From: Verrucomicrobiota bacterium
GTDB lineage: Bacteria; Verrucomicrobiota; Verrucomicrobiia; Limisphaerales; UBA9464
DNA: 49,578 nucleotides
Assembly (NCBI GenBank): GCA_947454705.1
Contig: CANGKZ010000038.1
Coordinates: 1 to 49,578 of the forward strand
Reading direction: 5' to 3'
Part shown: piece by piece, positions 260-49,578 of the stretch
Numbering within the stretch: position 1 is the stretch's first letter
How the letters are laid out: each line of letters opens with the position of its first letter
Notes under the pieces: generated by a model
Told to the model about the DNA's origin: nothing
What the model saw: the letters and a program-made list of their open reading frames with translations, nothing else
The model's database searches: none
Translations under genes and position numbers: made by a program

Positions 260-2842
260 TCAAATCGCGGACGGCACCGGGGGCTTCAATTCCGGCGGGG
301 CCGGATGCACTCCCACATCGCCACGAATGGTCGTGGCCCGGGCAAAGGTGATATCGGCGGAACGTCCATCGGTCCGCGTCGCATTCACCGCCAACACCGG
401 CAATTCGAACTGACCATCCGGCAGCAAAAACCGGAATGAGAACGATCCGTCCTCACGCAACGTGACTGGACGACCGGCGATGGTGACCGTCGCGTCGCGC
501 TCCGTGCTTCCGTACAGAATCACCTCGGCATTCACGCGGAACCAGAATCCCGGCGCTGCGGGCACCGCCGGCGGCCTGGCCGGAGCTTCCGAGGAAACCG
601 GCTTCAACAACGGCACCACTTGCGACACCGAAGAGGACGACGGATTCGAAGGCTTAACCGAAACCCCAATCTCGGGCACAAACTCGACTCGCGAACGACG
701 CTCGGGAATCACGGTTTCCCGCTCGGTCCATTCCACCGCGCGATCCGAACTTCCCGCAAAGACTGTGTTGGCCTCGCGATTCAGAATTCGCTGCAGCGCT
801 TCCAGCACCACCCACTGCTGCGAATGCGCTGCAGATCCGGTCGGCTTGGAGGAATCGCCACGGAATCGATCGGAAACACTGCCGAGCAAATTCTCCGGAT
901 TCACCGGACCCGAGGCCGGGCGCTGCGGAGATTCGGTCGCGGAATCAGTCGGACGATCCGATTCCCAACCACGTCCCCGGTCGCGTTCGCGATCGCGACG
1001 GGAAGATTCGCGGGGTGAACTCACCGGCTGGCTGATGGCCCATCCGCACCAGTGGCCCGTCGCCTCCTGATATCCAATTTCCGCCACGTATCCCGCTCCG
1101 GGAATCATCACCGGAACAAAGCGGTGCGTGGTGTCGAGCGGAAGGGGTTGATCGGAAATCCGCGTTCCACCCACCCATTCCTGCCACAGCCGCAGACGCC
1201 ACTCACCCCGCGGGCTGCGCGTGCGTTCCGCATCCACCACGGCCGACGGCAGATCCCAGTGCACGCAAACCGTGAACGGATCGCGCGCAATCACCCACAC
1301 CGATCCCGACAACACCGGGGCCGGGCGTGACGCCGACGAACTCACGGGCGCCGGCGTGGGCGCTGGCGCCGGCTGACTCGGCTGGGAACTTCTTCCTTCT
1401 TGGTGAGTCGACGCAGAAACGCCGGAACCCGAATTCACCGGGCTCGGAGCAGTGCCGGCCACCGGAGCCGATGCCCCAGCGGCGTCGGAAGCCAAAATCG
1501 ACGGTGCATCTTTTTCGGAACCGCTCGGCTGCGACACACCTGCCGTGGACACCGCAGTCTTGGCGGCGCGCACTCGGGCCTTTGAGCTCGCTGGATCGGG
1601 GTCGCCGGAAAGCAGGATCGAAGGAAGACGCGGCTGCGTGGAGAAACCCTTCCCGGCTGGAGCCGCCAGGTCCTTCGAACGGGCCGGAGTAGACTCCTCC
1701 TCAAGCGCCCGCGCGGCCACCGAGATCGCCACCGGCTCCAGCTTCACCGGAGGGGCTTGTACCGATTTAGGGACAATCGCAGACGGCAGCGGCGCGGCAG
1801 CGGCCGATGGTTTCGAAGCGACGGTGGGTTTGGTTGCCGGCTTGGGGGAAGACTTCGGGGAAGGCTTGCTGGCGGTCTTCTTCGCGACCGCAGGCTTGGT
1901 CGGTTTCACCACGACGACCGCAGGCTTGGCCACGGGAGCCGCAACGACGACGGCTTGGGGAGCGGGAACCGCAGCGGCTTTTGGTGCGGATTGCACCGTC
2001 GGCGGAATTGATGCCGGAGCGGGCTTCGGCGCGACGGCTTTGGTCGCGGCTTTTGCCTCAGTTTTTTGAACCGAAGGAGGCGCCGACGGAACCACTCCAA
2101 CCTTTGCGGGCTTGGACGGAGGAACGACAGAAGCCTTGGCCACCGCGACGGGTTTCACCGGTTTCAATTTCGGTACAACCTTCGGAGCCGGCGGTGCCAC
2201 AGCAGTCGGTTTGGAACCCGCCGCGGAGAGTTTGGATTCGACCGCCTTGGGCACGACCACAGCCGATGGTGAAGGCTTCACCGGATTTTTCGCGACGGGA
2301 GCTGACGTCGGCTTCGGAGCCGGGACTTTCGCAACGGGGGAAACGGAAGGTTTTACCAGTGCCTTCGCCACCGGTTTTGACTCCGGCTTCGCGGCCGCGG
2401 GAGCTGGAGCCGGGGCTGGAGTTGGAGTTGGAGTTGGAGCTGGACCATTTTTGGGCATCGCCCTCTTCGCCGGGGGCGGAGTCGGTTTGACGACCGCCTT
2501 GAGCGCAGGCTTGGTGGCCGCCTTCAGAATCGGTTTCGCCGGAGCCGCGGGCTTCGCGACGATCGGCGCGGGAGGCGCCACGGGCTTGGACGTCGCGACG
2601 GGTTTCGCGGGCGACGACGTGGCGGCAGGTTTGCTCTGGGTCGCCGGAAGCTTAGGGGGCGCGGCCTTCGACTGGCCCTTGGGAGGAGGGGCTTTGGCGC
2701 CAGGTGAGGAGGCGAAAGGCGACGCAGCGGCGGGAGAACGAGTCGGTCCGGGTTTGGTCGGTTTCTTCACCGGCGCAAAGAGTGAAACGCCATCCCCTCC
2801 CGGTGCAATGGGTTTCCACGTTAGATGTGACCCCGCACGCAA
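260..2842 (-). CDS. DUF4912 domain protein with long Lys/Ala/Pro-rich N-terminus
   Basis: Protein of 860 residues. Residues from about 20 to 500 are low-complexity Ala/Pro/Lys/Val/Ser sequence, resembling histone-H1-like or TonB-like linkers. From about residue 510 a folded region starts with VWVIARDPFTVCVHWDLP, the DUF4912 signature (Trp-rich, 'D..YaYV.WDL'-like). It is followed by a charged Arg/Asp/Ser stretch and a C-terminal beta-rich part (about 760-860, FWFRVNAEVILYG...) also seen in verrucomicrobial DUF4912 proteins. The molecular function of DUF4912 is not established. No signal peptide is visible. The frame opens with TTG at 2842, so the start is uncertain; GTG at 2770 (giving MKKPTKPG) is an alternative. 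The lysine-rich tail could bind DNA or an anionic polymer, which is inference only. The nearest gene to its right is the divergent DsrE-like trio, separated by repeats. Confidence 0.8.
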   Translation of the reverse strand: MRAGSHLTWKPIAPGGDGVSLFAPVKKPTKPGPTRSPAAASPFASSPGAKAPPPKGQSKAAPPKLPATQSKPAATSSPAKPVATSKPVAPPAPIVAKPAAPAKPILKAATKPALKAVVKPTPPPAKRAMPKNGPAPTPTPTPAPAPAPAAAKPESKPVAKALVKPSVSPVAKVPAPKPTSAPVAKNPVKPSPSAVVVPKAVESKLSAAGSKPTAVAPPAPKVVPKLKPVKPVAVAKASVVPPSKPAKVGVVPSAPPSVQKTEAKAATKAVAPKPAPASIPPTVQSAPKAAAVPAPQAVVVAAPVAKPAVVVVKPTKPAVAKKTASKPSPKSSPKPATKPTVASKPSAAAAPLPSAIVPKSVQAPPVKLEPVAISVAARALEEESTPARSKDLAAPAGKGFSTQPRLPSILLSGDPDPASSKARVRAAKTAVSTAGVSQPSGSEKDAPSILASDAAGASAPVAGTAPSPVNSGSGVSASTHQEGRSSQPSQPAPAPTPAPVSSSASRPAPVLSGSVWVIARDPFTVCVHWDLPSAVVDAERTRSPRGEWRLRLWQEWVGGTRISDQPLPLDTTHRFVPVMIPGAGYVAEIGYQEATGHWCGWAISQPVSSPRESSRRDRERDRGRGWESDRPTDSATESPQRPASGPVNPENLLGSVSDRFRGDSSKPTGSAAHSQQWVVLEALQRILNREANTVFAGSSDRAVEWTERETVIPERRSRVEFVPEIGVSVKPSNPSSSSVSQVVPLLKPVSSEAPARPPAVPAAPGFWFRVNAEVILYGSTERDATVTIAGRPVTLREDGSFSFRFLLPDGQFELPVLAVNATRTDGRSADITFARATTIRGDVGVHPAPPELKPPVPSAI
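2400..2446. repeat. Microsatellite inside the DUF4912 gene (GGAGTT/GGAGCT units)
   Basis: Short direct repeats of a 6-base unit, read on the plus strand as GGAGCT/GGAGTT, encode an alternating Pro-Ala/Pro-Thr run (about residues 133-147) in the minus-strand protein. Being in multiples of six, length changes would keep the frame. Confidence 0.6.
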
Positions 2843-2854
2843 AAGCAGAAATCA

Positions 2855-2882
2855 GAACCGCTGATGAACGCAGATGGACTCG
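2855..2882. repeat. Dispersed repeat C (GATGAACGCAGATGGA type)
   Basis: 'AACCGCTGATGAACGCAGAT' here resembles the CCGCAGATG/ATGAACGCAGATG units at 4224-4254 (opposite orientation) and 6640-6664. Short degenerate repeats of this kind occur between genes in many verrucomicrobial and planctomycetal genomes. Together with the next entries it fills the 372-base gap 2843-3214, in which I see no gene. Confidence 0.5.
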
Positions 2883-2940
2883 CCGAATTTGGATTCATGC
2901 GATTGAAGAGGCATCCAACACGACGGCGAAAGCATCCTCA

Positions 2941-3066
2941 TTCGTTCGGAGTCCCGTCTTCAGACGGTTCGGGTAGGCGTGTTTGAAGTTATTCGGGGTC
3001 TTGAAATTCCTCCGACCGTTGTATTCCAAGTCCAACAGCAGAGCCGCGTAAACGCGGTACTCCATA
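2941..3066. repeat. Palindromic dispersed repeat B, copy 1 (inverted relative to copy 2)
   Basis: Two perfect 14-base palindromes, CCGTCTTCAGACGG (2954-2967) and CCGCGTAAACGCGG (3044-3057), flank about 75 less conserved bases. The reverse complement of 6786-6910 has the same two palindromes with the same flanks (GGAGTCCC before the first, GAG and TACTCC around the second) at the same spacing. This defines a mobile or REP-like unit of about 125 bases. Confidence 0.8.
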
Positions 3067-3088
3067 CACGCGGGCTGAACGCTGCTTA

Positions 3089-3123
3089 CCCCTTCAACGC
3101 TTCAACTTTTTAACCCTTCAACC
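3089..3123. repeat. Dispersed repeat A (CCCCTTCAACGCTTCAAC block)
   Basis: A pyrimidine-rich block of about 34 bases. It is also present at 200-233, 6941-6974 and, inverted, 4141-4175. It directly follows repeat B copy 1 here, while at 6.9 kb it follows the CCGTCTGAAGACGG arm, so A and B are often neighbours. Confidence 0.7.
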
Positions 3124-3214
3124 GCCGCTTCGCCCACACCTCTCGGCCCTCGCTCCAAGCTCCCTCCACGAATCGAAACTTGGTCGATGCCCCGGCACGC
3201 GCTATCTCTGGGGC

Positions 3215-3532
3215 GTGACGCCATCCGGCAAAAAACTTGGGGTTCTGCTTTCGGGTTCGCCGAAGCATCCCGCCTTCCTGCACGGCGTACGCTTCGCCGC
3301 AGCCGCGCTCGATGCGGGGCACGACGTGTACCTGTATTGCATCGATGAGGGCGTTCTCGGCATCGACCACCCCGAATTGCAGGCCCTCGGCCAACGCGGA
3401 TTGAAACTCTACGGCTGCGCCTACGGGGCCCATCATCACGGCGTGCCCGTCGATGACCGAGCCACCTTTGCCGGTCTCACCGTGGTCAGCGACATGGTCG
3501 GCGGCACCGATCGCTTCGTCAGTTTCCAGTAA
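3215..3532 (+). CDS. DsrE/TusD-like sulfur-relay family protein
   Basis: Protein of 105 residues opening with GTG. It has the DsrE-family fold pattern: a first strand LGVLLSG, an acidic-hydrophobic second strand DVYLYCIDEGV, and a late LKLYGCAYGAHHHG segment. The cysteine in that last segment (about residue 69) is in the position of the persulfide-carrying cysteine of DsrE/TusD. DsrE-type proteins relay sulfane sulfur in tRNA thiolation (TusBCD) or in sulfur oxidation (DsrEFH). It is the first of three small genes (spacings of 38 and 28 bases) whose products resemble the D, C and B subunits. No dsrC/tusE or tusA lies nearby, so the pathway is open. Confidence 0.7.
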   Translation: MTPSGKKLGVLLSGSPKHPAFLHGVRFAAAALDAGHDVYLYCIDEGVLGIDHPELQALGQRGLKLYGCAYGAHHHGVPVDDRATFAGLTVVSDMVGGTDRFVSFQ

Positions 3533-17099: not shown

Positions 17100-19193
17100 A
17101 TGATCCGGCCCATGATTCGGTCACATCCCAGCCTGCGCATCGCAGTCAGCCTCGGAATGGCTCTGGCCGCCTTCCAAAGCCACGCGGCGGAATCCGCCCC
17201 GCGCCCCATCCGATTCGACGACCTGCTCGCGACCCATCGGGTCTCGTCCCCCACCCCGTCGCCCGACGGACGCTGGATCGCCTACGTCAACACCGACGTG
17301 GACAAGGCCGCCAACCGCGGCAATTCCGACGTGTGGCTCATCCCCACCGCCGGCGGCACTCCGCGTCCCCTCACCACCTCGCCCAAACACGACCGTCACC
17401 CCACCTGGTCCCCCGATGGTCGCTGGATCGCCTTCGAATCGAACCGCGACGGGGAGTTTCAAATTTGGGTCATCCCCGTGGAGGGCGGCGAAGCCCGCAA
17501 GCTCACCACCGTTTCCACCGAGGCAACCCGCCCGATGTGGTCGCCCGACGGCAGCTCGATCGCGTTTGTCTCCGCGGTCTTCCCTGAATTCTCCGATCGG
17601 CCCTTTGCCGATTCGAACGCCGCCAACAAGGCGCAACTCGATGCCCGCGAAAAGAGCCCCGTGAAGGCGCGGGTCATGGATCAGCTCCTGTACCGGCATT
17701 GGGACTCCTGGGTGGATGATCGCCGACAGCACTTGTTTGTGGTGCCCGTGCGCGAAGGCCGGGCCGCCGGGGAACCGCGCGACCTCACCCCGGGCAAACG
17801 CGACGCCGTCCCCACCTCGACCACGTTTGAGGCGGGCGATGAATTCGCCTTTTCCCCCGATGGCGGCGAACTCACCTACACCGCCACTCCGGAGGACACT
17901 CGCACCGAGGCCTGGAACACGAACCACGATCTGTGGTCCGTCGATCTGAAGACCGGAAAGCGCCGCCAAATCACCTCCAATCCCGCCGCCGACGGCTGCC
18001 CGAAATACTCCCCGGATGGCAAGTGGCTCGCGTACCGCGCACAGGCCCGCGCAGGATTCGAGGCCGACCGGTGGCAATTGATGCTGCTTGAGCGCACCAC
18101 CGGGAAAACGCGGAGCCTGACTGCATCGTGGGACGCATCGGTCGAAGACCTCACGTGGTCTTCCACCTCCACCGCGCTGGTCATCACTGCGGAATCCAAG
18201 GCCACCAAACTGCTGTGGTCGCTCCCCATCACCGGAGGCACGCCTACTCCCCTCACCCGCGGCGGCGCTGCGGCCGAAGCGGTCGTTGCCACCGGCGACC
18301 AAGTGGTGTTCACCCGCAGCCGTCTGACAGAGCCCGCTGAAATTCATCGCGTTGCCCTGCAATCCAGGCAGGAGCCGGTGCCCGTCACCTCGCTGAACGC
18401 GGACTGGAAATCCAAATTGATCCTGTCCGAACCGGAGTCCTTCACCGTGCGCGGGGCCGGTGGCACGCCGGTGCAGATGTGGCTGATCAAGCCCCCGGGC
18501 TATGTGACCGGACGCAAGTATCCGCTGGTGTTCTGGGTCCACGGCGGCCCGCAGAGCGCCTTCATGGATTCATGGTCCTACCGATGGAACGCCCAACTCT
18601 GGGCCGCGCAGGGGTATTTGATCGCGATGCCGAATCCCCGCGGATCCACCGGGTTTGGGCAAAAGTTCACCGATGAAATATCCCGCGACTGGGGTGGCCG
18701 ATGCTTTGGCGATTTGATGGCCTGCATGGACGCCCTGGAGCAGCGGCCCGATGTGGATCGCTCGCGCATGGCGGCCGCTGGCGCCTCATTCGGCGGCTAC
18801 ATGATGAACTGGTTCCAGGGACACACCGACCGGTTCAAGACGCTGATCACCCACTGCGGCGTGTACGAATTCCATTCGATGTACGGAACCACCGAGGAAG
18901 TCTGGTTCGACGAATGGGAGCACGGCATTCCCTGGGAAAATGCGGAATTCGGAAAATGGAGCCCGCATCAGTACGCGGCCAAATTCAAAACCCCGAATTT
19001 GATCATCCACAACGAACTCGATTTCCGGGTTCCGATCGCCCAGGGCCTGAGCCTGTTCACAACGCTTCAACGGAAGGGAATTCCGTCCAAGCTTCTGTAC
19101 TTCCCCGACGAAGGCCACTGGGTGCTCAAACCGCAAAACAGCGAGCTCTGGCACAAAACCATCTTCGACTGGTTGAAGGTGTATTTGAAGTAG
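17100..19193 (+). CDS. Secreted S9 family peptidase (prolyl oligopeptidase type)
   Basis: Protein of 697 residues with a signal peptide (RIAVSLGMALAAFQSHA). Residues 30-400 form a WD40/TolB-like beta-propeller with repeated SPDGRWIAY/SPDGKWLAY elements. The C-terminal alpha/beta-hydrolase carries the triad: S563 in GASFGGYMMN, D641 in NELDFRVP and H673 in EGHW. It probably cleaves short peptides in the periplasm (dipeptidyl or acylaminoacyl peptidase type). The start could also be the ATG at 17112. It ends 20 bases from the convergent LamG gene. Confidence 0.9.
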   Translation: MIRPMIRSHPSLRIAVSLGMALAAFQSHAAESAPRPIRFDDLLATHRVSSPTPSPDGRWIAYVNTDVDKAANRGNSDVWLIPTAGGTPRPLTTSPKHDRHPTWSPDGRWIAFESNRDGEFQIWVIPVEGGEARKLTTVSTEATRPMWSPDGSSIAFVSAVFPEFSDRPFADSNAANKAQLDAREKSPVKARVMDQLLYRHWDSWVDDRRQHLFVVPVREGRAAGEPRDLTPGKRDAVPTSTTFEAGDEFAFSPDGGELTYTATPEDTRTEAWNTNHDLWSVDLKTGKRRQITSNPAADGCPKYSPDGKWLAYRAQARAGFEADRWQLMLLERTTGKTRSLTASWDASVEDLTWSSTSTALVITAESKATKLLWSLPITGGTPTPLTRGGAAAEAVVATGDQVVFTRSRLTEPAEIHRVALQSRQEPVPVTSLNADWKSKLILSEPESFTVRGAGGTPVQMWLIKPPGYVTGRKYPLVFWVHGGPQSAFMDSWSYRWNAQLWAAQGYLIAMPNPRGSTGFGQKFTDEISRDWGGRCFGDLMACMDALEQRPDVDRSRMAAAGASFGGYMMNWFQGHTDRFKTLITHCGVYEFHSMYGTTEEVWFDEWEHGIPWENAEFGKWSPHQYAAKFKTPNLIIHNELDFRVPIAQGLSLFTTLQRKGIPSKLLYFPDEGHWVLKPQNSELWHKTIFDWLKVYLK

Positions 19194-42431: not shown

Positions 42432-42583
42432 CGTAGCCGCCGCCGGGGGAAGGCGGATCACCCGAAGTTGCCAAGTTACCCGTCCCCATCATTGGGGTTT
42501 CTCCGACGTAAGCCCGCGTACGCTGACTTTGGAGTGCGGCGGGAAGCGCAGCGCCACGCCGCTTTGCTCAACGCCCACCCACG
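42432..42583. repeat. Dispersed palindromic repeat D, copy 1
   Basis: Begins CGTAGCCGCCGCCGG, holds an inverted CCGCC...GGCGG pair, then CATCATTGGGG, AAGCCCGCGTACGCTGACTT, and ends with a GC-rich hairpin tail (TTTGGAGTGCGGCGGGAAGC then GCAGCGCCACGCCGCTTTG). The second copy is at 42726, a truncated one at 49336. The gap 42384-43066 (683 bases) consists mainly of these units and has no supported gene. Confidence 0.82.
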
Positions 42584-42725: not shown

Positions 42726-42876
42726 CGTAGCCGCCGCCGGAAGAAGGCGGATTACCCGAAGTCACCAAGTCATCCGCCCCCATCATTGGGCTACCCCAAC
42801 CCAAGTCCGCGAACGGCGACTTTGGAGTGCGGCGGGAAGCGCAGCGCCACGCCGCTTTGCTCAACGTCCACCCACA
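42726..42876. repeat. Dispersed palindromic repeat D, copy 2
   Basis: Same orientation and same length as copy 1, with about four fifths of the bases shared by eye; the TTTGGAGTGCGGCGGGAAGC tail is identical. Confidence 0.82.
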
Positions 42877-49041: not shown

Positions 49042-49329
49042 ATGGCCCGCATCACCATCCTTCCCGCCCAGGTATCCGCCGAAGTCCCCGATGGCGAGGA
49101 ACTCATCGAGGCGGGCGAAAAAGCCGGCGTCGAAATGGAAGCCGGCTGCTTCAACTGCTCCTGCGGCACCTGCGTGGCCGAGGTCGTGTCGGGCATGGAG
49201 AACATCACCCCGCCGACGGATGAGGAACTCGACGTCCTCGATCAATGGAACAAGGACCCGGAGAAGTACCGCCTGACCTGCTGCAACAAGATCCTCCGCG
49301 GCGAAGTGACTCTGCGCGCGGGCCATTAA
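49042..49329 (+). CDS. [2Fe-2S] ferredoxin
   Basis: Protein of 95 residues, plant-type ferredoxin fold. Cluster ligands are C36, C41, C44 in AGCFNCSCGTCVAEV and one of C80/C81 in YRLTCCNKI. An additional cysteine (C39) within the loop and the paired C80-C81 are unusual and leave some doubt which four bind the cluster. The acidic region PPTDEELDVLDQWNKDPE is typical of partner recognition. It transfers electrons in the cytoplasm; the partner is unknown. It is divergent from the histidine kinase, with 148 bases between the starts. Confidence 0.9.
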   Translation: MARITILPAQVSAEVPDGEELIEAGEKAGVEMEAGCFNCSCGTCVAEVVSGMENITPPTDEELDVLDQWNKDPEKYRLTCCNKILRGEVTLRAGH

Positions 49330-49335
49330 TCTGCG

Positions 49336-49436
49336 CGTAGCCGCCGACGGGAGAAGGCGGATCAGCCGGGCGTTCAAAGTCACCCGCGCATCCATTGGGC
49401 CACCCCAACCCAAGCCCGCGTACGCTGACTTTGGAG
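49336..49436. repeat. Dispersed palindromic repeat D, copy 3, truncated
   Basis: Matches copies 1 and 2 from CGTAGCCGCC to GTACGCTGACTTTGGAG. It then stops abruptly: where the others continue TGCGGCGGGAAGC, this one reads CAATGGTGTTAGCC, which belongs to the IS110-type element. Confidence 0.8.
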
Positions 49437-49578
49437 CAATGGTGTTAGCCAACAAGGTGGAAGTTGGGATTTTTGAGGAGGCGGTTGAGGAGAATGAGAA
49501 GCTTGCGAAGGCAGGCTGTGAGAGCGACGAGGGGTTTTTTGCCGCGTGCCAAGAGTTGCTGGTAGTGAGCCTTGAGGA
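49437..49578 (-). mobile_element. IS110-family insertion sequence, right end (cut by window edge)
   Basis: The element begins where repeat D is broken off at about 49436/49437 and runs out of the window. Only about 8 bases separate the presumed end from the transposase stop codon. This fits the IS110 group, which has a short 3' non-coding end and a longer 5' end that encodes the bridge RNA. Confidence 0.7.
49445..49578 (-). CDS. IS110-family transposase, C-terminal 44 residues (partial)
   Basis: Reading the minus strand from the window edge gives LKAHYQQLLARGKKPLVALT, then ACLRKLLILLNRLLKNPNFHLVG and a TAA stop at 49445-49447. 'YQ.L.ARGK...VAL.A..RKLL.ilN.ll+' is the well-known C-terminal end of IS110/IS116/IS902 transposases (Transposase_20 region with the catalytic serine upstream). 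The 5' part lies beyond the window, so intactness cannot be judged. Confidence 0.85.
   Translation of the reverse strand, partial: LKAHYQQLLARGKKPLVALTACLRKLLILLNRLLKNPNFHLVG

What the first reader, a model, noticed from the sequence alone, without database searches (positions are those of the whole stretch)
49336..49578. IS110-type element inserted into a dispersed palindromic repeat
Repeat D copy 3 is identical in layout to copies at 42432 and 42726 up to TTTGGAG, then breaks exactly where a sequence begins that ends an IS110-family transposase. IS110-family elements use a bridge RNA to choose their target, and several are known to enter REP-type palindromes. So this is a visible natural target junction, and repeat D may be the preferred landing site in this genome. 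With the full element one could read the target loop of its bridge RNA against TTTGGAG/TGCGGCGG.
Basis: partly seen in the sequence, partly recalled or inferred. Interest (0 to 1): 0.8.

Follow-up and report, generated by a model that had tools for sequence, protein, structure and literature searches.

The report
RNA-guided jumping gene in palindromic repeat
The end of this contig is the right end of a multicopy IS110-family jumping gene sitting exactly in the head of a dispersed palindromic repeat, a well-formed example of guide-RNA-directed insertion that is known in kind.

Summary
The window is a whole contig (G000:C38) of a Verrucomicrobiota genome that stops inside a multicopy IS110-family element. 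The same right end occurs at 8 contig ends, 7 of them identical over 143-147 bases. A same-genus relative supplied the left end and bridge RNA. With it I found 6 left-end junctions in this genome: all 6 flanks end CCGCA|CT in REP-type repeats, and all 8 right flanks begin CT|CCAWA. Uninterrupted copies (two in this window) read CCGCCGCA-CT-CCAAA, so the boundary at 49436/49437 is exact. In 16 relatives (14 usable for the left target, 15 for the right) the predicted guides match each element's own site better than the others' (0 of 20,000 permutations). The landing site is the GGAG head of a repeat unit with 178 intact CCGCACTCCAWA sites, not repeat D as such. This genome's own target loop is not assembled. 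The partner flank of the window's copy is unresolved: gene order points to contig C70, which also begins with a right end, suggesting two head-to-head copies. REP-targeting IS110 elements are known; this is a new member of a known kind.

The parts
49437..49578 (-). right end (RE) of an IS110-family element, cut by the contig end; only 8 non-coding bases (49437-49444) follow the transposase stop
   Evidence: 100% identical at 7 contig ends plus 24 bases (5 of them flank) at an eighth; flanks diverge at the same point in all 8
49445..49576 (-). C-terminal 43 codons of the transposase (49448-49576) plus stop codon (49445-49447)
   Evidence: NF033542 positions 308-340/343, E 8.8e-4; 88% identical over 43 aa to G008, whose main open frame has both IS110 Pfam domains
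49435..49436 (-). core dinucleotide CT (AG on +), the presumed recombination core found at both element ends
   Evidence: LE junctions ...CCGCA|CT|TGTAT and RE junctions ...ACCATTG|CT|CCA; a single CT in empty copies
49430..49436 (+). TTTGGAG, the remaining half of the target: GGAG head of the REP unit (right target, CTCCAAA on -)
   Evidence: shared with intact copies at 42528-42534 and 42821-42827
49336..49436 (+). repeat D copy 3: GTAG-headed REP unit plus spacer, interrupted at its second REP unit
   Evidence: 75.8-80% identical over 89-91 bases to 5 intact D copies; whole-genome matches to the D stretch
42432..42573 (+). repeat D copy 1, uninterrupted (empty site); target TTTGGAG|TGCGG at 42528-42539
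42726..42866 (+). repeat D copy 2, uninterrupted (empty site); target at 42821-42832
49042..49329 (+). [2Fe-2S] ferredoxin-type gene next to the insertion; in 4 of 6 genus relatives that have it, the gene that starts contig C70 follows 220-440 bases downstream
   Evidence: Fer2 E 1.6e-10; gene order

Best explanation
The feature is the right-end junction of a recently active, multicopy IS110-group element (IS621-like layout: long non-coding left end, transposase, 8-base right end). Most likely the transposase, loaded with a bridge RNA from the left end, recombines the circular element's donor site (ACCATTG-CT-TGTAT) with a chromosomal target (CCGCCGCA-CT-CCAAA). Both are read by short guides in two RNA loops. 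That target is the GGAG head plus the first stem bases of a REP-type palindromic repeat, so copies land at repeat ends and carry CT at both ends. Shown here: element identity, the two ends, core, target consensus and empty sites in this genome; the donor guide in this genome's C63 copy; a conserved RNA structure and guide-target matching in relatives. Inferred: that the RNA is made and used in this genome, the recent activity (from near-identical copies), and the circular intermediate.
For: RE at 8 contig ends, 7 identical. LE junctions 6 of 6 end CCGCA-CT in REP repeats; RE flanks 8 of 8 begin CTCCAWA. Empty-site paralogues with the REP end upstream, among fetched stretches only: C38 5, C60 1 (97.8% over 90 bases), C59 5. 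178 CCGCACTCCAWA sites, 0 for the reversed control. G008 main open frame: PF01548 E 5.1e-17, PF02371 E 1.7e-17; its left end folds at z -5.4. Consensus RNA over 11 of the 16 left ends: 47 pairs, 31 with compensatory changes. Guide test: LT8 own 6.86 vs 5.54 (14 loci), RT7 own 6.20 vs 5.07 (15 loci), 0 of 20,000 permutations each; without the core, 31 (left) and 2 (right) of 20,000. G008 left guide AGCGCACT equals its left target, right guide CTTGGAG vs TTTGGAG. G038 left guide TCCGCACT (seen in 2 of its 3 left ends) fits the 3 left targets in 7 of 8 positions. Donor guide and right end both carry ACCATTG in G000 and G008, ACCGTTG in 15 other relatives; this is probably one change in one lineage.
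Against: No IS110 transposase domain is assembled anywhere in G000, so the full element is inferred from relatives. The target loop is absent from the G000 left ends found; the one longer left end (C63) is 74 nt shorter than G008's between core and donor guide and lacks it. The far flank of the window's own copy is not identified. G038 right flanks begin CTCC in 3 of 3 but CTCCA in only 1, so the right half of the target is not fully kept there. The permutation test treats related elements as independent, and left-guide matches are imperfect in several relatives (L111, L115, L142 5 of 8; L107, L110 6 of 8). Two partial matches of right flanks (C59 flank on C39, 64 bases; C70 flank on C43, 63 bases) have no REP end upstream.
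Confidence: 0.93

Rival explanations
1. The transposase recognises the hairpin shape of REP DNA itself (as RAYTs do) rather than its sequence through a guide RNA.
For: All 6 G000 left ends lie at the end of palindromic repeats; the single G008 left end lies at the end of a repeated stretch; the 3 G038 flanks look alike by eye.
Against: Rebuilt empty sites of 13 of the 16 relatives (3 had too little flank), G008 included, are not unusually foldable: 0 of 13 in the 5% tail of own-locus background, best 0.083. Their guides match their varied targets.
Confidence: 0.04
2. The junction is an assembly chimera, with an unrelated multicopy end wrongly joined to repeat D.
For: It lies at a contig end of a fragmented assembly, and contigs here break at this element.
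Against: Eight right ends with different flanks break at the same point; 6 left ends break at the complementary point; G008 carries the whole element between matching halves.
Confidence: 0.02
3. The element belongs to the IS1111 group, with its guide RNA downstream of the transposase.
For: IS1111-group ISPa11 targets REPs (PMC11187229, passages read).
Against: Only 8 non-coding bases follow the stop codon; the structured, guide-bearing region lies upstream.
Confidence: 0.01

Closest known systems
IS621 (IS110 group, E. coli) and its bridge RNA
   Same: DEDD/Tnp_20 transposase, long left end with a two-loop RNA, insertion into specific sites such as REPs (PMC11208160, passages read); CT core and left end beginning CT-TGTAT (IS621 donor recalled from memory, no call)
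   Different: Other host phylum, other target (CCGCCGCA-CT-CCAAA), other donor half (ACCATTG)
ISPpu9, ISPpu10, ISPa11, ISPsy8 and other REP-targeting insertion sequences
   Same: Specific insertion into REP sequences (Tobes and Pareja, PMC1525189, abstract read; ISPpu9 with seven copies in REPs, PMC8450116, search listing)
   Different: The examples named there are from Pseudomonas and Sinorhizobium; ISPa11 is of the IS1111 type with its RNA downstream of tnp (PMC11187229, passages)
GTAG-tagged REP repeats with RAYT transposases
   Same: Repeat D is a pair of short palindromes, one with a GTAG head; one Y1_Tnp protein is in the genome; a Verrucomicrobium, O. terrae, is reported as highly enriched in GTAG repeats (PMC3733652, passages)
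   Different: The unit that is hit has a GGAG head; no RAYT link was shown here

Membership tests
IS110 family (IS110 group) | Transposase with DEDD (PF01548) and Transposase_20 (PF02371) domains | tested here: met
   Met in the G008 relative (88% identical over the 43 aa) over its main open frame. In the window only 43 aa, NF033542 E 8.8e-4; no full gene assembled in G000
IS110 family (IS110 group) | Structured non-coding left end upstream of tnp, short right end | tested here: met
   G008 left end folds at z -5.4; 31 of 47 consensus pairs with compensatory changes in 11 left ends; right end 8 nt
IS110 family (IS110 group) | Donor guide matches the element's own ends | tested here: met
   G000 C63 left end has CGAACCATTG, right ends ACCATTG-CT; other relatives ACCGTTG in both. 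The 16 relatives were chosen by ACC[AG]TTG, so only the A/G change is informative, and it may be a single event
IS110 family (IS110 group) | Target guide matches the insertion site | tested here: met
   Met in relatives by permutation test and, left guide, in G008 and G038; not testable in G000, whose target loop is not assembled
IS110 family (IS110 group) | Insertion at a short core without long target duplication | tested here: met
   CT at both ends, one CT in empty paralogues
IS110 family (IS110 group) | Circular double-stranded intermediate | not testable with these tools
   needs reads or PCR
IS1111 group | Long non-coding region with guide RNA downstream of tnp | tested here: not met
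   8 nt between stop and core
REP / BIME repeats | Short palindromes, high copy number, conserved head, paired in BIMEs | tested here: met
   178 CCGCACTCCAWA sites; at least 15 inverted pairs about 150-200 bases apart among the rows listed, which are a part of the 178; GTAG and GGAG heads and single-strand folds. Not tested: that all 178 lie in repeats or between genes
REP / BIME repeats | Cognate RAYT transposase | tested here: inconclusive
   One Y1_Tnp gene at C26:62346-62693; nearest GTAGCCGCC about 1 kb away, nearest GGAGTGCGG about 3.5 kb, within C26:59000-71000

The most novel reading that the evidence does not exclude
The C63 copy in this genome carries a left end 74 nt shorter than its relative's. 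It has lost the whole target loop while keeping the donor loop. If the deletion is real and the RNA is still made, it would be a natural half bridge RNA able to recognise the element but not a target, for example an excision-only or inhibitory derivative. Alongside it, two head-to-head copies appear to sit on either side of one unassembled piece, perhaps a repeat, between C38 and C70, which could make a composite unit mobile.
Probability: 0.07. Interest if true: 0.55.

Novelty: new member of a known kind. Interest (0 to 1): 0.35.

Why it matters
It gives a natural data set for bridge-RNA targeting in Verrucomicrobiota: occupied and empty sites in one genome, a consensus of 8 right and 6 left junctions, and relatives whose guides change with their targets. 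It also explains why this assembly breaks at these points. The principle (IS110 elements read REPs through a bridge RNA) is established, so the gain is a further element with a target of about 15 bases, not a new mechanism.

Tried and rejected
Looking for the full element in G000 with PF01548 and PF02371 gave nothing: the interior of the element is not in the assembly. The 43-aa fragment against plasmid records gave 25 records with weak matches (best E 0.05 of those listed), none covering 80% of it, most of the listed ones annotated as IS110 or plain transposase. A viral-contig scan found no relative. Rfam gave nothing above a gathering score for the G008 left end. A first bridge-RNA alignment (A2) had loose coordinates and was replaced by A3. 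Hairpin-shape targeting was tested and not supported.

To find the partner of the window's copy I compared gene order. In 4 of 6 genus relatives with the ferredoxin gene (G004, G005, G006, G008) the gene that starts C70 lies 220-440 bases downstream; G007 and G009 did not show it, and no ferredoxin match was found in G010. C70 starts with a right end, so no left-end contig could be assigned. The fetched stretches of those 4 relatives hold none of the four REP motifs searched, so the repeat there seems to be of the G000 lineage. Whether C54, the only contig found with left ends at both ends, lies between C38 and C70 was not settled: a 2-kb query from C54 gave no match in G006, and in G008 only the element itself and a 60-base match.

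The C63 deletion is placed by eye. MAFFT put the 74-nt gap near the start of the left end, not over the target loop. My placement rests on C63 being identical to the left ends of C39, C54 (end), C69 and C20 up to GTTGCGGGCCGGC and then rejoining the G008 sequence at GCCGGCTCC. That the junction occurs in reads is inferred from the contig ending about 143 bases beyond it, not shown.

Rows dropped: of 80 loci, 16 were kept for the guide test because they had GAACC[AG]TTG upstream, ACC[AG]TTGCT downstream and a left-end start 154-181 nt before the guide (L107 had two candidate starts and the 176-nt one was taken). For the LT test 2 more were dropped (flank cut at the contig end); for the RT test 1 (only 6 bases). 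One search ran the same test with all 16, with the same 0 of 20,000. Of the 16, 11 went into the structure alignment.

Full report
What is there. The window is the whole of contig C38 of a 5.45-Mb, 80-contig genome. A same-genus genome, G008, corresponds to a named uncultured Verrucomicrobia MAG (CAIXUG01; its contig 40 has the same length and a 100% match), so the host is a Verrucomicrobiota bacterium. Repeat D copy 3 ends with TTTGGAG at 49430-49436, and foreign sequence begins at 49437. Copies 1 and 2 continue with TGCGGCGGGAAGC. On the minus strand the foreign part encodes the last 43 residues of an IS110 transposase (NF033542 308-340/343, E 8.8e-4).

Why the contig stops. The last 147 bases are identical at the ends of C60, C44, C38 and C5, over 146 bases at the end of C7, and over 143 at the starts of C70 and C43; 24 bases are at the end of C59. 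The near-identity points to recent spread (inference). The contig ends where the copies become indistinguishable to the assembler (inference).

The other end. The same-genus genome G008 holds one complete element. Its transposase gene seems frameshifted: the reading from the first ATG meets a stop, and the main open frame starts further on. Its left end, used as a query, found 6 left-end contig ends in G000: C39, C54 at both ends, C63, C69, C20. It also found 3 in G038, a genome of another genus in the family. The left flank ends CCGCCGCA|CT in 5 and CCACCGCA|CT in 1 of the 6 in G000. In G038 the three flanks end GCCGCA|CT, CCCGCA|CT and GCCGCA|CT, and its three right flanks begin CTCCACGG, CTCCGACG and CTCCCACG. 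In G008 the flank (CAGCGCA|CT) is the end of a repeated stretch: 14 further places in G008 match it (40 of 120 candidates were scored), and 11 of them stop at query positions 138-140, the core being 139-140.

Empty sites. The sequence next to the window's right end occurs uninterrupted in 5 other places among the fetched stretches, that of C60 in 1 and that of C59 in 5. In these 11 the sequence upstream is the REP end ...CCGCCGCA joined by a single CT. Two further partial matches (C59 flank on C39, 64 bases; C70 flank on C43, 63 bases) have no REP end upstream. No empty paralogue was found for C44, C5, C7, C70 or C43, but only fetched stretches were searched. The pattern CCGCACTCCAWA occurs 178 times in G000 and its reversed control 0 times.

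Guides. In G008 the left end folds well (z -5.4). Over 11 left ends a consensus of 47 pairs has 31 with compensatory changes, including the stem that closes the target loop. In 16 relatives whose two ends could be called (of 80), the zone before the donor guide matches the element's own left and right targets better than those of the other elements: 0 of 20,000 permutations (14 loci left, 15 right); without the core bases 31 (left) and 2 (right) of 20,000. L129 and L131 have nearly identical RNAs whose left guides differ in step with their targets. The G008 left guide AGCGCACT is identical to its left target; its right guide CTTGGAG differs by one base from TTTGGAG. The relation of guides to strands follows Durrant et al. 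(PMC11208160, passages read). Rebuilt sites of 13 relatives, G008 included, fold no better than their surroundings (0 of 13 in the 5% tail), which speaks against reading of hairpin shape.

Limits. The target loop of G000's own element is not assembled. The only longer left end, C63, has 98 nt between core and donor guide against 172 in G008 and lacks that loop; the placement of the gap is by eye (see Tried and rejected), and deletion or artefact is open. The window copy's partner flank is unknown. In 4 of 6 relatives the ferredoxin gene (49042-49329) is followed by the gene that begins C70, and C70 begins with a right end in the opposite orientation. The simplest reading is two copies head to head around an unassembled piece; this is an inference.

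Comparison. REP-targeting insertion sequences have been described since at least 2003-2006 (IS621, reference entry seen; PMC1525189, abstract), and their RNA guides since 2024 (PMC11208160, PMC11187229, passages). Two searches, IS110 with Verrucomicrobia and transposase (7 papers) and Verrucomicrobia with repetitive extragenic palindromic (4 papers), listed no title on IS110 insertion into REPs in this phylum; PMC3733652 (passages) reports GTAG repeats in O. terrae. The finding is a new member of a known kind, well documented but not surprising.

Noticed in passing
G000:C63 about 18803-19016 (L200): Left end of one copy is 74 nt shorter than in G008 between core and donor guide and lacks the target loop while keeping the donor guide; the contig continues into the transposase start.
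   Followed up: partly
window 49437-49578 and L208 (G000:C70 start): Contigs that should be neighbours by gene order both end in the right end of the element, pointing to two head-to-head copies or a rearrangement.
   Followed up: partly
L129 and L131 (Kiritimatiellae MAGs): Two nearly identical bridge RNAs differ in the left target guide in step with their insertion sites, a natural retargeting pair.
   Followed up: partly
G000:C26:62346-62693 (L203): A single Y1_Tnp (possible RAYT) gene, with GTAG- and GGAG-headed REP motifs about 1 to 6 kb away.
   Followed up: partly
L066 about 2328-3278 (G008): The only complete close relative of the element seems to have a frameshifted transposase gene.
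   Followed up: no
window 11393, 18792, 24677, 25603 (-), 6549 (+), 43013 (-): Further REP heads (GTAGCCGCC on the first four, GGAGTGCGG on the last two) elsewhere in the window.
   Followed up: no
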